Shown: positions 19,258-28,672 of the stretch, one piece after another
Layout of the letters: each line of letters starts with the position of its first letter
How positions within the stretch are numbered: the stretch's first letter is position 1
Source of the DNA: Solirubrobacterales bacterium
GTDB lineage: Bacteria; Actinomycetota; Thermoleophilia; Solirubrobacterales; Solirubrobacteraceae
Reading direction: 5' to 3'
Assembly: GCA_027449125.1 (NCBI GenBank)
Contig: DAIDME010000035.1
Coordinates: 1-64,000 of the forward strand
Length of the DNA stretch: 64,000 nucleotides
Made by a program: the position numbers and the translations under genes
Notes under the pieces: model-generated
Database searches by the model: none
What the model saw: only the letters and a program-made list of their open reading frames with translations
What the model was told of the DNA's origin: nothing

Positions 19258-20433
19258 CTAGCGCGTGGCGGGGTTGGGCGTGAGCGTCTGCAGCGCTCGC
19301 CGCACCTGCTCCAGCGTGAGTATGCCGGTGAGGGTGTCGTCGGCGTCGGTTGCGATCACGGCCCCCAGTCGCCCGAGCGAATCGAGTGCGAGCACCTCCG
19401 TCAGCGGCCGGTCCTGACCGATCGCCAGCCGCTCGCTGCCAGGCTCGAGGATCGAGCCGACCGTCGCCGCCCCCTCGCCGGCGCGCACGAGCTCGTCGGC
19501 GCGGATACGACGGGCGATCCCGATGAAGCGCCCGTCACCGTCGACCACGGGCAGCCAGTCGCTCTGGTAGCGCAGGAAATACTCGTCGTAGGCGCGCTCG
19601 ACGGTTGTCGTGCCCCGTAGCACAACGGGCTCGTGGTCCATCACGTCTGCCACGCGCACGCCGCTCACACGGCTGACAGTGGCCGTGCCGGCCAGGGCCG
19701 CGCGGGCGGATTGCCACAGCATGAAAGCCAGGAACATCAGCCAGATGCCCACGAAGCCGCCGGTGCGCAGCGTCAGGAAGAGTCCCAGGCCGCCGATCAG
19801 CACGCCGAATCCCTCGCCCATGCGTGCCGCGACCCTGGTGCCGCGGAGCTTGTCGCCAGTCGCACGCCACACCGCGGCGCGGGCGATCCGGCCGCCGTCC
19901 AGCGGGTAGGCGGGGACCATGTTGAAGATCAGGATGAGGACGTTCATGGCCAACAGCCAGCTCAGCGCGAGCAGCGCCGGCGTGATCGCGACGGCGCCGT
20001 TCAAGACGATCGCATCAAGCAGGCGGTGGGGGCCGACCAGCGCCAGATCCACCGCGAGGCAGACCAGCACGAACGAGAGGGTGCCCAGGGGGCCGGCGGC
20101 GGCGATGCGGAACTCCTCGCCCGGGCTCTGCGAATCACGGCTCATGAAAGTGGTGCCACCGAACAGGAAGAGCTCGATCCGCTGAACTGTGATGCCCTCG
20201 CGACGGGCGGCCAGGGCGTGACCCAGCTCGTGCACGATGAGCGAGCCGTAGAACAGCAGCACAGTCGCCACAGTGGTCATGTAGGCGACCGTGCTCGAGG
20301 ACCGCAGGGCGCTCTGAAAGGAGCCAGATAGCAGGAAGATCAGCAGGAACAGCATCACGAACCAGGTCATGTCTACGCCGATCCTGATGCCCGAGACGGT
20401 CATCAGCCGAAGCGATCGTGAGCTGCGGAACAT
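19258..20433 (-). CDS. Site-2-type M50 metalloprotease with CBS domains
   Basis: Intramembrane zinc protease of 391 aa. Several hydrophobic helices carry HELGH at residues 68-72 and the second zinc motif NMVPAYPLDGGRI near 170; a CBS pair occupies about 265-391. This resembles the Rip3/SpoIVFB-CBS architecture, where CBS domains sense adenine nucleotides and gate proteolysis of membrane-bound regulators. The start is uncertain: ATG at 20433 or 20403, the frame remaining open further upstream. No obvious substrate such as an anti-sigma factor is adjacent. Confidence 0.88.
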   Translation of the reverse strand: MFRSSRSLRLMTVSGIRIGVDMTWFVMLFLLIFLLSGSFQSALRSSSTVAYMTTVATVLLFYGSLIVHELGHALAARREGITVQRIELFLFGGTTFMSRDSQSPGEEFRIAAAGPLGTLSFVLVCLAVDLALVGPHRLLDAIVLNGAVAITPALLALSWLLAMNVLILIFNMVPAYPLDGGRIARAAVWRATGDKLRGTRVAARMGEGFGVLIGGLGLFLTLRTGGFVGIWLMFLAFMLWQSARAALAGTATVSRVSGVRVADVMDHEPVVLRGTTTVERAYDEYFLRYQSDWLPVVDGDGRFIGIARRIRADELVRAGEGAATVGSILEPGSERLAIGQDRPLTEVLALDSLGRLGAVIATDADDTLTGILTLEQVRRALQTLTPNPATR

Positions 20434-20479
20434 GCTGCAATGGTGGCATAGGCTGTTCCCCTCTACAGAAAGGTTTGTG

Positions 20480-21988
20480 ATGCAGGACGCGACAGAGGAG
20501 CTGCGGGAGCTCTTGGCCGGGATCGCGGACCTCGAGCGCGCACGCCGCGTGCTGAGCTGGGACCAGAGCACCAAGATGCCGCCACGCGGAGCCGACGCCC
20601 GTGCCAGGCAGATCGCGACGCTCGCCGACGTCACCCACGAGCGCTTTGTCGCGCCGCGTACCGGGGAGCTCATCGCGGCGGCCGAACGGGAGGTCGCGCA
20701 GCTCCCCGGCGAGTCGGTGACGGCACGCGTGGTGGCCAAGGCTCGCTGGCTATACGACAAGGATGTTCGTGTGCCGACGGCGCTCGTCAGCGAGCGGGCA
20801 CGGGCCGCTTCCGACGGCTACCGGGTTTGGCTCGCCGCCAGGGCCGCGGACGACTTCTCCGCGTTCGCGCCGGTGCTCGAGCGGAACTTTGCGCTGGCAC
20901 GGCAGTACGCCGCCTGCTTCGACGAGTACGCAGATCCCTACGACGCCGTGCTCGACGACTACATGCCGGGCATGACCGACGCGACGCTCAGCGCGCTGTT
21001 CGGTGAGCTCCGGGGCGAGCTGGTGCCGCTGGTCGACGCGCTCGCCGGCCGGCCGATCGACACCGCTCCCCTCACTGCCGCCTTCAGCGTCGAGGCGCAA
21101 CGCGGACTCGTTGCCGAGGTGCTCGGCTGGCTAGGTTTCGATCCCTCAGGCTGGCGACTCGACGACACCGCGCATCCCTTTCAGTCGAGCTTCTCAGGTG
21201 GCGATGTGCGGCTCACGACCCGCTTCGAGCCCGACTACTTTCCGACGTCGCTCTACGGTGCGATGCACGAATGCGGCCACGGGCTCTACGAAGCGGGCAT
21301 TGCGCCCGAGCTCGAGCGCACACCGCTCGGGAGCATCTACTCGCTCGCGATGCACGAGTCGCAGAGTCGCATGTGGGAGAACATGGTGGGCCGCAGCCGC
21401 GCGTTCTGCGATGCGCTCGCGCCGGTGCTCGCGGCCCGGTCCGATGGTGCGTTGCGCGGACTCGACGGCGCGGCGCTCTTCCGTGCGGTCAACGCGGTGC
21501 GGCCATCGCTGATCCGCATCGAGGCGGACGAGACCACCTACAGTCTGCACGTGATCCTGCGGCACGAGCTCGAGCGGTCGCTGATGCGTGGCGAGCTGGC
21601 GGTGGCCGATCTACCGGAAGCCTGGAACAGCGGGATGCGAGACTACCTCGGCGTCGTTGTGCCTTCGGATGCCGACGGCGTCATGCAGGACGTCCACTGG
21701 GGCCAAGGGCTGATCGGCTACTTCCCGTCCTATGCGGTCGGCAACCTGATCGGCGGCCAGATCTGGGAACGCGTGCGCGGGGCGCTGCCCGGCCTCGACG
21801 AGCAGCTGCGCCAGCACGACCTGCGCGCGCTGCGCGAGTGGCTCAGCGACCAGATCTACCGGCACGGCTCGGCCTTCAGCGATGCGGAGCTGCTCGCGCG
21901 CATCGCCGGCGCGCCGCTTCGGGTCGCGCCGTTCGTTCGCTACCTGCGCGGCAAGCTCGGCGAGGTGTACGGCGTCGAGTTGGCGTAG
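20480..21988 (+). CDS. M32 family metallocarboxypeptidase (Taq carboxypeptidase type)
   Basis: Cytosolic zinc carboxypeptidase of 502 aa with broad C-terminal specificity. The catalytic HECGH is at residues 263-267 in [12 protein letters not shown]; the third zinc ligand lies in the following [14 protein letters not shown]. The [21 protein letters not shown] stretch is characteristic of M32. The ATG at 20480 follows AGAAAGG; a longer open frame to 20369 overlaps the divergent protease gene. Confidence 0.93.
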
Positions 21989-26444: not shown

Positions 26445-26690
26445 ATGCTCAGACGACGGTCACGCTCAGCGCAGGCGGAATCCCGGCCGGAGCGCGCGGC
26501 CGGGCGGAAGCCCAGGCGCGGGAGGCGGCGCGTCTCGAAGCTGTTCGCGCTGGCGACCATCGGCACGGCAGCGACGCTCGCGCTCTCGGAGAGAGCGCGC
26601 GGGAAGGCGCTCGACGCGCTGTTCGGATCCGAAGAGGAGTTCACCTATACGCCACCGTCCAGCGCAGACGGCGACGGTTCCGCGTCCTGA
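26445..26690 (+). CDS. Small basic protein with one hydrophobic segment
   Basis: 81-aa protein: a very basic N terminus (RKPRRGRRR), a short hydrophobic stretch LFALATIGTAATLALS (about 33-48), then an acidic C terminus (FGSEEEF). GGGGAG sits seven bases before the ATG. Probably a small membrane-associated protein; family not recognised. It precedes the ECF-type promoter at 26701. Confidence 0.68.
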   Translation: MLRRRSRSAQAESRPERAAGRKPRRGRRRVSKLFALATIGTAATLALSERARGKALDALFGSEEEFTYTPPSSADGDGSAS

Positions 26691-26700
26691 GGGGCCACCG

Positions 26701-26727
26701 GGAAGGATCCTCGCAGCGCGGGCGTCC
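26701..26727 (+). promoter_or_regulatory. ECF-sigma-type promoter upstream of putative anti-sigma gene
   Basis: GGAAG (26701-26705), 17 bases, CGTCC (26723-26727). Its 3-prime part GCGCGGGCGTCCTTG is identical to that of the promoter at 28044-28070. This is the GGAAC-N16/17-CGTC architecture of ECF promoters. Confidence 0.65.
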
Positions 26728-26799
26728 TTGCTCAGTGAGGACTGCAACCTGCGATCGAAGCGGACCGCCTGAGTGAAGCCAGGTCCAGACGAGCCGACA

Positions 26800-27462
26800 A
26801 TGCCCGACGACAACAAACCCACAGACCGGTCGACGGCGCGGACCGAGCGGGTGAGGGACCTGCTGCGGGCGGCTGCCGTCGATGAGCGAGCCCCACACCG
26901 GCTCCGCGAGCGCATCGGCGGGCTCTCGGGCGGCGGCGCAGCCGTGCCCCGTCGCCGGCGCCCGTTGCTGGGCGCGTGGGGACTGGGGGCGGCCGCGATC
27001 GTGGCGCTGGCCGCCTTCGTCGCCGTCACGGGAGCTGGCCCCGGCGTGCCTTCACTGGCTCAAGCGGCAACGCTGGGGCGCCAGCGCCCGGACGCTCCCG
27101 CCCCGGGCCCGGCGCCTGGGTCCGCCTACTGGCTTTCAGCGCGCGTGGGCAATCTGAGCTTCCCGAACTGGGGTGCCTACGGCGGCTGGCGCAGCGACGG
27201 TGAGCGCCGCGGGCAGCTCGGTGACCGCAGCGCCCTCACCGTTTATTACGCGGCCGGTGCACGCCAGATCGCCTACACGATCGTCGCCGCCCCCGCGCTC
27301 GCTGCGGCCGGCGCTGCACGCGGGGGGCATCACATCACGCTCTGGCAGCACGGTCGTGCGACCGTGGTCTGGGATGAGGACGGTCACACCTGCCTGCTGT
27401 CGGGCGCCGGCGTTTCGCCCCGGCGCCTGTGGCGACTCGCCTCGGAAGCGCTGCGGAGGTAG
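26800..27462 (+). CDS. Single-pass membrane protein, putative anti-sigma factor
   Basis: About 220 aa: a charged cytosolic N terminus (about 1-65), one transmembrane helix (GLGAAAIVALAAFVAVTGAG), and an extracytoplasmic domain with LSFPNWGAYGGWRSDGERRG and VVWDEDGHTCLLSG. No HxxxCxxC zinc anti-sigma motif is seen. The anti-sigma role is inferred from its convergent neighbour, an ECF sigma gene, and from the ECF-type promoter at 26701. A GTG at 26773 is an alternative start adding nine residues; neither start has a convincing ribosome-binding site. Confidence 0.75.
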   Translation: MPDDNKPTDRSTARTERVRDLLRAAAVDERAPHRLRERIGGLSGGGAAVPRRRRPLLGAWGLGAAAIVALAAFVAVTGAGPGVPSLAQAATLGRQRPDAPAPGPAPGSAYWLSARVGNLSFPNWGAYGGWRSDGERRGQLGDRSALTVYYAAGARQIAYTIVAAPALAAAGAARGGHHITLWQHGRATVVWDEDGHTCLLSGAGVSPRRLWRLASEALRR

Positions 27463-27509
27463 CGACGCGCGGCAGCGTCGGCCACGGCGGCGCGCCTTCC
27501 GTGCGCGGC

Positions 27510-28004
27510 TCAGAGCCCGATCGCGTCGGCGACTCGCTGCCGGGCCCGGTGCACGCGGGTGGTGAGCGTCGCCTCCCGCACCCGCAGTGCCCGCGCCGCC
27601 TCGCGGTAGCTGAGGCCCATCACGTCGACGGCGACGAGCGCATCGCGGAAGCCGTCCGGCAGGGCGGCGATCGCCGCGTAGAGCTCGCTGGTCTCGATCC
27701 GTCGCTCCGGTGAAGCGGCCGAGCGATCCTCGATGGCCGTGAGATCGTCCGGCAGGGGCGTCGTGAGCGGGCGGCGCGCAGCTGCGCGCCGCCCGCTCAC
27801 AAAGGTGTTGCGCAGCACGCGCAACAGGTAGCCGAGGTCATCGGAGCTGCGCACCAGCCGGGGCTTCGCCAGCACTCTGGCGAACGTCTCCTGCACCAGG
27901 TCCTCAGCTTCCTCGCGTGAGCCGCACATGCTCCAGGCGGCGCGGTACAGCCGGTCGATGTGGTCGCCGAGCGACTCCGGGTCCAATTGGTGCTCATCCG
28001 GCAT
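27510..28004 (-). CDS. ECF-type RNA polymerase sigma factor
   Basis: 164-aa sigma-70 family factor with only regions 2 and 4. Region 2 is HIDRLYRAAWSMCGSREEAEDLVQETFARVL; region 4 is ALPDGFRDALVAVDVMGLSYREAARALRVREATLTTRVHRARQRV with its recognition helix. Start at 28004, chosen because TATGCT (28013-28018, minus strand) lies eight bases upstream and the frame before it has no family similarity. It is convergent with its likely anti-sigma partner and divergent from the secreted protein at 28109; both have matching ECF promoters, so they are the likely regulon. Confidence 0.93.
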   Translation of the reverse strand: MPDEHQLDPESLGDHIDRLYRAAWSMCGSREEAEDLVQETFARVLAKPRLVRSSDDLGYLLRVLRNTFVSGRRAAARRPLTTPLPDDLTAIEDRSAASPERRIETSELYAAIAALPDGFRDALVAVDVMGLSYREAARALRVREATLTTRVHRARQRVADAIGL

Positions 28005-28043
28005 CTCGCGCCAGCATAAGCTCCCGGCGGTGAGGCCGGCGCG

Positions 28044-28070
28044 GGAAGAAATGTCTGCGCGCGGGCGTCC
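28044..28070 (+). promoter_or_regulatory. ECF-sigma-type promoter of the secreted repeat protein
   Basis: GGAAG (28044-28048), 17 bases, CGTCC (28066-28070), then TTGG. Same spacing and same 15-base 3-prime sequence as the promoter at 26701. It lies 39 bases upstream of the GTG at 28109. Confidence 0.7.
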
Positions 28071-28108
28071 TTGGTAGCGACCGGCAATCAACCGAGGAGG
28101 AATCGAAA

Positions 28109-28672
28109 GTGTTGAAGTCAAGGCTTGCGGTCGCTGCTGTCGCGGTGGCGGCGCTGGGTGGCGGCGTGGCCGCGGTCGCGGTGCCAAGCGCCGGCGCCGC
28201 CACCGCGCATCGCGGGAAGGCCAAGCACGGCAAGGCCGTCAGGGCGCAGGTCGTCGTCAGGATGGCCAAGGTCCACGTCGTCGCAGGGTCGAGCAACAAG
28301 CTGCGCGAGGTGCTGGTCGACGCCGCCGGCAAGGCGGTGTACACGCTGAGCGGCAACACGCCGACGCACCCGAAGTGCATCGATGTCACGTGCCTGACGG
28401 CCTGGCCGGCTGTGACGACCACCGCAAAGCGGCTGGTGCTCGGCAAGGGTGTCAAGGGCAAGCTCGCGATCTGGCACCACGGCAAGCTGAGCCAGGTGAC
28501 GCTTGACGGTCGCCCGCTCTACACGTTCGCGGCCGACACCGTCGGCACGGCGTCCGGCGAGGGGATCAACAACTTCGGCGGCGTCTGGGAGCTCGTCAAG
28601 GCCAATGGCGCCCCGATGCCGAAGAACGCCGGCAAGACGACCTCCACCAGCAAGAGCGGCAGCGGCTGGTGA
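28109..28672 (+). CDS. Secreted protein with PF03640-type repeats
   Basis: 187-aa exported protein. The signal peptide (about residues 1-32) ends near AGAAT, followed by a Lys/His-rich linker. Two repeats of the COG4315 secreted-repeat family follow: LREVLVDAAGKAVYTLSGNT with a cysteine pair in HPKCIDVTCLTAWP, then LSQVTLDGRPLYTFAAD to NNFGGVWELVKANG. A perfect GAGGAGG Shine-Dalgarno (28094-28100) precedes the GTG. Family role is unknown; it is probably the effector output of the adjacent ECF sigma factor. Confidence 0.9.
   Translation: MLKSRLAVAAVAVAALGGGVAAVAVPSAGAATAHRGKAKHGKAVRAQVVVRMAKVHVVAGSSNKLREVLVDAAGKAVYTLSGNTPTHPKCIDVTCLTAWPAVTTTAKRLVLGKGVKGKLAIWHHGKLSQVTLDGRPLYTFAADTVGTASGEGINNFGGVWELVKANGAPMPKNAGKTTSTSKSGSGW

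What the first reader, a model, noticed from the sequence alone, without database searches (positions are those of the whole stretch)
26701..28672. Three-gene ECF sigma module with two matched promoters
An ECF sigma gene (27510-28004) is convergent with a single-pass membrane protein and divergent from a PF03640-type secreted protein. Both flanking genes carry GGAAG-N17-CGTCC promoters sharing the 15-mer GCGCGGGCGTCCTTG. The sigma gene itself has a different, housekeeping-like leaderless -10. The membrane protein lacks a zinc anti-sigma motif, so the sensing mechanism may be new.
Basis: partly seen in the sequence, partly recalled or inferred. Interest (0 to 1): 0.72.

Follow-up and report, generated by a model that had tools for sequence, protein, structure and literature searches.

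The report
Sigma switch with shortened anti-sigma domain
A soil-bacterium gene switch (an ECF sigma factor) is predicted to turn on its own membrane-bound inhibitor and one secreted protein but not itself, and in this branch the inhibitor lacks part of the domain with which related inhibitors hold the sigma factor.

Summary
The ECF sigma gene, single-pass membrane protein and PF03640 secreted protein lie as described; GGAAG-N17-CGTCC precedes both flanking genes, and the 15-mer occurs only twice in the assembly. In Solirubrobacterales relatives the promoter (GGAAGGWT-N13-GCGTCnT) recurs before the membrane-protein gene in 12 of 15 readable convergent loci, before the adjacent PF03640 gene in 8 of 9 loci, and before sigma in 0 of 19 convergent loci. 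It also precedes PF03640 genes elsewhere (23 of 59 in 28 same-genus genomes; reversed control 1 of 59). The membrane protein is most likely the anti-sigma factor: 16 of 32 loci with this family carry a full zinc-free class I anti-sigma domain (nearest solved chain RskA), whereas the window protein and close kin lack helices 1-2 and keep helices 3-4. Its ectodomain is predicted RseB/MucB-like by fold only. Lack of zinc is ordinary and does not imply a new sensing mechanism. Unusual are the shortened anti-sigma domain, missing the helix with the conserved sigma4 contact, and feedback that induces the inhibitor but not sigma. Everything is computational; no binding, transcription start or signal was measured. 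New variant of a known kind.

The parts
26701..26728 (+). Predicted sigma-dependent promoter of the anti-sigma gene, GGAAG-N17-CGTCC
   Evidence: the only strict-motif hit in this genome; the motif precedes the membrane-protein gene in 12 of 15 readable convergent loci
26800..27462 (+). Membrane anti-sigma factor: shortened class I domain (predicted helices 9-28 and 33-42, corresponding to helices 3-4), membrane helix about 63-77, RseB/MucB-like ectodomain about 83-220 (alternative GTG start 26773)
27510..28004 (-). ECF sigma factor, 164 aa, sigma2 and sigma4 only
28013..28019 (-). Predicted leaderless -10 (TTATGCT) of the sigma gene, 8 nt before ATG
   Evidence: TATGCT in 10 of 19 convergent loci; no start site mapped
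28044..28071 (+). Predicted sigma-dependent promoter of the PF03640 gene, GGAAG-N17-CGTCC
   Evidence: the motif precedes the adjacent PF03640 gene in 8 of 9 loci
28109..28672 (+). Secreted PF03640 protein, 187 aa, signal-peptide-like N-terminus, two repeats, CX4C pair (C90, C95); the only PF03640 match of this genome
   Evidence: signal peptide and cysteines read from the sequence

Best explanation
An ECF sigma / anti-sigma switch. Sigma is made at a basal level from a leaderless housekeeping-type promoter. The membrane protein holds sigma at the membrane with what is left of a class I anti-sigma domain: helix 4, which in solved complexes binds sigma2, and helix 3. An extracytoplasmic signal felt by the RseB-like ectodomain releases sigma, probably by regulated proteolysis. 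Free sigma transcribes two promoters at this locus: the anti-sigma gene (negative feedback) and the secreted PF03640 gene (output). Sigma does not induce itself, so the loop resets rather than amplifies. Shown by computation: gene identities, conserved promoters, absence of the motif at the convergent sigma genes, absence of helices 1-2. Inferred: binding through helices 3-4, proteolysis, signal, role of the PF03640 protein.
For: Motif before the membrane-protein gene in 12 of 15 readable convergent loci, before adjacent PF03640 in 8 of 9, before sigma in 0 of 19 convergent loci, reversed control 0. Strict motif 49 against 0 in 28 genomes; of the 39 matches that are not tRNA-like, 13 precede the membrane-protein family and 8 a PF03640 gene by profile, and one more (L231) reads as a membrane-protein start cut by a contig end. 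23 of 59 PF03640 genes carry the motif within 450 nt, control 1 of 59. Full-length relatives have class I anti-sigma N-termini: RskA (4nqw_B) is the best solved chain at E 0.0099; NCBIfam anti-sigma models match 12 of 14 and RsrA 11 of 14 (for the one member shown, scores are below the curated cut-offs), zf-HC2 6 of 14; predicted helices 15-22, 29-41, 43-64, 69-78. The window protein matches only positions 42-66 of the 77-position RsrA profile (E 0.1). A31, P32 and L35 at the start of helix 4 are at least 90% conserved over short and full members. In 12 of 32 loci that hold both genes the membrane-protein gene lies downstream of sigma on the same strand. The ten best PDB fold matches are all RseB/MucB.
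Against: No experiment. Without helix 1 the protein may bind sigma weakly or not at all. The helices of the shortened domain are modelled with only moderate confidence (block means 57-80). RseB resemblance is by fold only: best E 2.2e-3, none below 0.001, TM about 0.33 over the whole query; profile searches did not find RseB. 3 of 15 readable convergent loci (L065, L096, L113) lack the motif before the membrane-protein gene, and 8 of 12 head-to-tail loci have it before neither gene. 16 of 48 related sigma loci show no such membrane protein. The -35 GGAAG differs from the AAC usual for ECF factors. In single genomes the motif is near background (43 against 29 controls in this genome; 37 against 35 and 43 against 29 in two others).
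Confidence: 0.72

Rival explanations
1. The membrane protein of this branch has stopped being an anti-sigma factor. It is now only a sigma target or an accessory sensor, and another protein, or none, restrains sigma.
For: Helix 1, which carries the conserved sigma4 contact of class I domains (PMC7406223, passages), is missing together with helix 2; no coding trace was found in up to 800 nt upstream in six frames for 8 short loci with upstream sequence (best E 0.31), while two full-length loci, which were also in the model, score about 1e-23.
Against: The start of helix 4 stays conserved across short and full members; synteny and promoter are kept; the two upstream genes tested have no anti-sigma match in Pfam, though the 81-aa neighbour is uncharacterised.
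Confidence: 0.17
2. An ordinary ECF pair in which the shortening has little mechanistic meaning, because helix 3 still reaches sigma4 and helix 4 still binds sigma2.
For: The predicted first helix is 20 residues long (9-28), close to helix 3 of the full protein (43-64). In known complexes helix 3 also contacts sigma4 (PMC7406223, passages and contact table).
Against: The paper finds the conserved, co-evolving sigma4 contact in helix 1, which is absent here, and says helix 2 matters for the fold of the bundle.
Confidence: 0.32
3. The matched motifs are chance GC-rich matches or sites of another regulator.
For: The loose motif is no more frequent than its reversed control in this genome (27 against 40).
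Against: 49 against 0 for the refined motif in 28 genomes and placement before two specific gene families.
Confidence: 0.04

Closest known systems
RskA/SigK and other class I anti-sigma factors without zinc (RskA, RseA)
   Same: Single-pass membrane anti-sigma, zinc-free N-terminal helical domain; full-length relatives match RskA (4nqw_B) best among solved chains
   Different: The window protein lacks helices 1-2; its gene is convergent to sigma and has its own sigma-type promoter
RseB/MucB with RseA/MucA
   Same: Predicted ectodomain fold matches RseB/MucB (again with the model of a relative from the same alignment)
   Different: Here the RseB-like domain is fused to the anti-sigma factor; no RseB C-terminal-domain match in the genome at E up to 1; no sequence-level match
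Streptomyces coelicolor SigU/RsuA with target SCO0930
   Same: An ECF sigma whose regulon is said to include SCO0930 (PMC6295645, one passage); the NCBIfam SCO0930 family also matches the window protein at 2.9e-15 but at 56 bits against a cut-off of 275
   Different: No evidence here of the same sigma subfamily, arrangement or promoter
Typical ECF operons (sigma plus anti-sigma, positively autoregulated)
   Same: Two-domain sigma, CGTC -10
   Different: Not co-transcribed, no sigma-type promoter at sigma, -35 GGAAG rather than AAC (typical features from PMC8103513, passages)

Membership tests
ECF sigma factor (group IV) | sigma2 and sigma4 domains only, short linker | tested here: met
   Sigma70_r2 residues 14-78, Sigma70_r4_2 residues 107-157, protein 164 aa; the defining feature kept in current classifications (PMC8103513, passages)
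ECF sigma factor (group IV) | targets with AAC in -35 and CGT in -10 (early, since relaxed criterion) | tested here: not met
   -10 CGTC met; both window promoters read GGAAG at -35. The comparative set was selected with GGAAG, so it cannot test this
ECF sigma factor (group IV) | co-transcribed with the anti-sigma gene and positively autoregulated (early, since relaxed criterion) | tested here: not met
   convergent here; motif at sigma in 0 of 19 convergent and 2 of 12 head-to-tail loci
Class I anti-sigma factor (ASDI) | N-terminal four-helix domain | tested here: not met
   the window protein has two predicted helices, corresponding to 3-4; full in 16 of 32 loci. So derived from ASDI and probably works like one, but not a complete ASDI
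Class I anti-sigma factor (ASDI) | zinc motif Hx3Cx2C (optional) | tested here: not met
   absent in the window protein and in the 14 aligned full domains; optional in the family
Class I anti-sigma factor (ASDI) | binds and inhibits its sigma factor | not testable with these tools
   needs a binding or transcription assay
RseB/MucB | RseB-like fold | tested here: inconclusive
   ten best PDB fold matches, best E 2.2e-3, prob 1.00, top nine with a relative's model; no profile match
PF03640 Lipoprotein_15 | Pfam model above gathering score | tested here: met
   50.3 bits against 24.4, two stretches; no lipobox seen, so secreted rather than lipid-anchored (read from sequence)

The most novel reading that the evidence does not exclude
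A reduced-grip anti-sigma factor: in Solirubrobacterales, probably more than once, a class I anti-sigma domain lost helices 1-2 with the conserved sigma4 contact and inhibits mainly through helix 4 on sigma2, with an RseB-like sensor fused in cis, in a circuit where sigma induces only its inhibitor and secreted PF03640 proteins.
Probability: 0.33. Interest if true: 0.66.

Novelty: new variant of a known kind. Interest (0 to 1): 0.48.

Why it matters
[quoted passage not shown] Natural short versions beside their sigma gene, with full-length sisters in the same genus, make that model directly testable. The conserved promoter gives this Solirubrobacterales ECF family a predicted regulon and suggests a role for PF03640, a family of unknown function, as an ECF output. 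Inhibitor-only feedback also differs from the usual self-amplifying ECF operon.

Tried and rejected
Zinc absence as novelty: rejected, common. The 15-mer as the functional unit: rejected, relatives share only GGAAGGWT...GGCGTCnT. Loose genome-wide motif as proof: uninformative. Occlusion of the sigma promoter by RNA polymerase on the PF03640 promoter: the distance from the motif to the sigma ATG varies from about 24 to about 173 nt among seven loci (my reading), so not a general feature. Hidden helices 1-2 upstream of short genes: none found in 8 loci with upstream sequence. L063, also in that run, begins at a contig end, so it was not really tested there; its start is read from another contig of the same genome (L225). 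L062 (start off the contig; L231 read instead) and L079 were not in the run. Sigma columns separating short from full partners: several differ, but they may follow the tree, so nothing is claimed. VIA structural alignment: library absent. Literature: no paper held both 'ECF sigma factor' and COG4315, none held COG4315; searches for PF03640, Lipoprotein_15 and SCO0930 listed no study that I recognised as functional, and only two of those papers were opened, for one passage each. The ECF re-classification paper was not among the 20 of 24 listed, so no ECF group number was determined. Listings gave no system recognised as this one; they were capped lists and mostly not opened, so I do not claim that short class I domains or inhibitor-only feedback are absent from print. 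Non-canonical ECF review PMC8999054: one passage, not relevant.

Because of the last point the probability of the novel case went from 0.40 to 0.33, of the ordinary rival from 0.25 to 0.32, and of the best explanation from 0.75 to 0.72.

Full report
The observation. The 15-mer occurs twice in the assembly. The looser promoter pattern is not enriched in this genome (27 against 40 reversed controls; a variant 43 against 29), so the case rests on comparison with relatives.

Relatives. 25 of 28 same-genus genomes have a sigma match at E 1e-48 or better; the other three reach only about 1e-11. A genome-contig scan placed the close family in Solirubrobacterales and near kin by record titles, with named members in Conexibacter, Svornostia and Solirubrobacter. 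I compared 48 distinct sigma loci. The membrane-protein family is convergent to sigma in 19, downstream on the same strand within 3 kb in 12, about 4 kb away in one (L116) and not seen in 16, some of them at contig ends.

The promoter. With GGAAG-N15..16-GCGTC sought in 300 nt before the gene, convergent loci show it before the membrane-protein gene in 12 of 15 readable cases (4 of 19 are cut by a contig end; L065, L096 and L113 lack it) and before sigma in 0 of 19. The adjacent PF03640 gene has it in 8 of 9 loci over all arrangements. The reversed control has none. In head-to-tail loci it stands before sigma in 2 of 12 (L074, L077) and before the membrane-protein gene in 2 of 12 (L075, L094); the other 8 have it before neither. 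A stricter form matches 49 times in 28 genomes against 0 reversed controls. Ten of the 49 share a tRNA-like sequence; the six fetched are selenocysteine tRNA genes. Of the other 39, a profile search finds the membrane-protein family downstream of 13 and a PF03640 gene downstream of 8; L231 also reads as a membrane-protein start cut by a contig end. The remaining 17 precede mixed or unclear genes, including a cupredoxin, a DJ-1/PfpI protein and an F420-type oxidoreductase; I do not claim these as targets.

From the PF03640 side. The 28 genomes hold 59 such genes, merged from 93 matches; this genome has one. 23 of 59 carry the motif within 450 nt upstream of the Pfam match, against 1 of 59 for the reversed control; strict form 8 against 0; two of the 59 have little upstream sequence. 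The 450-nt limit misses at least L061 and L060, which have the motif further up, so 23 is a lower bound. Five of the 23 (L283, L284, L328, L331, L334) are genes beside the sigma loci compared here. The other 18 are not beside those loci, though one (L303) lies about 1.2 kb from a short partial sigma match. So the link is not only synteny. 36 of 59 do not carry the motif, so not every PF03640 gene is a predicted target.

The sigma gene's own promoter. TATGCT stands 8-14 nt before the start codon in 10 of 19 convergent loci, and TATCCT in 3 more (read): a leaderless housekeeping-type -10. L074 and L077 have the ECF motif at that place instead. So in the window arrangement sigma is predicted to induce its inhibitor and a secreted protein but not itself, whereas ECF operons are typically co-transcribed with the anti-sigma gene and positively autoregulated (PMC8103513, passages; the same passages say about 55% are predicted to be autoregulated).

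The membrane protein. It has no Pfam match. Of 32 loci with this family, 16 have a longer N-terminus (LADGSL..RR..V...ASPEL...ERR..AL...RAP..LR.RI), 11 are short (L062 by inference), 2 diverge (L096, L097) and 3 were not classed (L073, L082, L112). A profile of 14 of the 16 finds RskA as best solved chain (E 0.0099; next unrelated hit 0.42). NCBIfam anti-sigma models match 12 of 14 and RsrA 11 of 14; for the one member shown the scores are below the curated cut-offs. zf-HC2 matches 6 of 14. The model of L106 shows three helices plus a fourth before the membrane. This is a class I anti-sigma domain without zinc ligands. In the window protein and in L060, L061, L063, L076, L079, L084, L110, L111 and L114 the first two helices are missing; L062 is added because a fragment of the same genome (L231) reads that way. 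In the window an in-frame stop lies 30 nt before the ATG and the promoter ends 73 nt before it; no trace of helices 1-2 was found upstream in 8 short loci. For L110 and L114 the frame is open far upstream, so their starts are less certain. The window model has helices 9-28 and 33-42, at moderate confidence, and the protein aligns with positions 42-66 of the 77-position RsrA profile (E 0.1). Of the 9 loci with an adjacent PF03640 gene, 8 are short (L062 by inference); L086 is full. The sigma tree needs four changes between full and short, at least two of them forced by starred branches, but only 15 of 48 inner branches are starred and 24 rows carry no label.

Why that matters. Casas-Pastor and colleagues (PMC7406223, passages) report a conserved dual interface, helix 1 on sigma4 and helix 4 on sigma2, and that about 44% of these domains lack zinc ligands. 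They also report helix-3 contacts with sigma4, so a helix 3-4 protein could keep some hold on sigma4. The window protein keeps A31, P32 and L35 at the start of helix 4 (at least 90% conserved). Either the reduced grip is enough, or helix 3 compensates, or the protein no longer inhibits sigma.

The ectodomain. Modelled with high confidence (block means 86-97 except one of 66). Its ten best PDB fold matches are all RseB or MucB (best E 2.2e-3, none below 0.001). The model of L106, made from the same sequences, gives RseB/MucB as the top nine, so it is not an independent test. Sequence profiles do not find RseB; Pfam gives only weak single-member hits, among them DUF4367 and DUF4245, in 15 members; no RseB C-terminal-domain match is in the genome at E up to 1. 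One cysteine, C198, is invariant in both alignments made (18 and 15 rows). M50 proteases are present, as in all 14 control genomes, so proteolytic release is possible but not specifically supported.

The output protein. I found no functional study of PF03640. SCO0930, name-giver of the NCBIfam model that matches this protein below its cut-off, is listed in the SigU regulon of Streptomyces coelicolor (PMC6295645, one passage), a precedent for ECF control of such a protein. A cysteine pair spaced by three to five residues before WP is seen here and in five motif-bearing paralogues; a redox or metal role is a guess.

Verdict. A conserved ECF sigma / anti-sigma module of Solirubrobacterales with a shortened anti-sigma domain and predicted inhibitor-only feedback. 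The parts are of known kinds; the combination is a new variant.

Noticed in passing
window 19258-20760 (-): A membrane M50 (site-2-protease-type) protein with a CBS domain lies about 6 kb from the module; a second M50 match is on another contig. Either could in principle cut the anti-sigma factor.
   Followed up: partly
window 26445-26690 (+): Small basic protein of 81 aa just upstream of the anti-sigma promoter, no Pfam match.
   Followed up: partly
L211, L217, L218, L220, L221, L232: The promoter pattern also matches a conserved selenocysteine tRNA gene, so several same-genus genomes encode tRNA-Sec.
   Followed up: partly
L222, L219, L240, L247: Strict promoter motif before a cupredoxin, a DJ-1/PfpI protein, an F420-type oxidoreductase and a protein with a weak Tat-signal match: possible further targets of this sigma family.
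   Followed up: no
L068, L072, L080, L083, L085, L087-L093, L095, L098, L099, L117: 16 of 48 sigma loci of the same clade show no membrane-protein family member; some end at contig edges, and their regulators were not identified.
   Followed up: no
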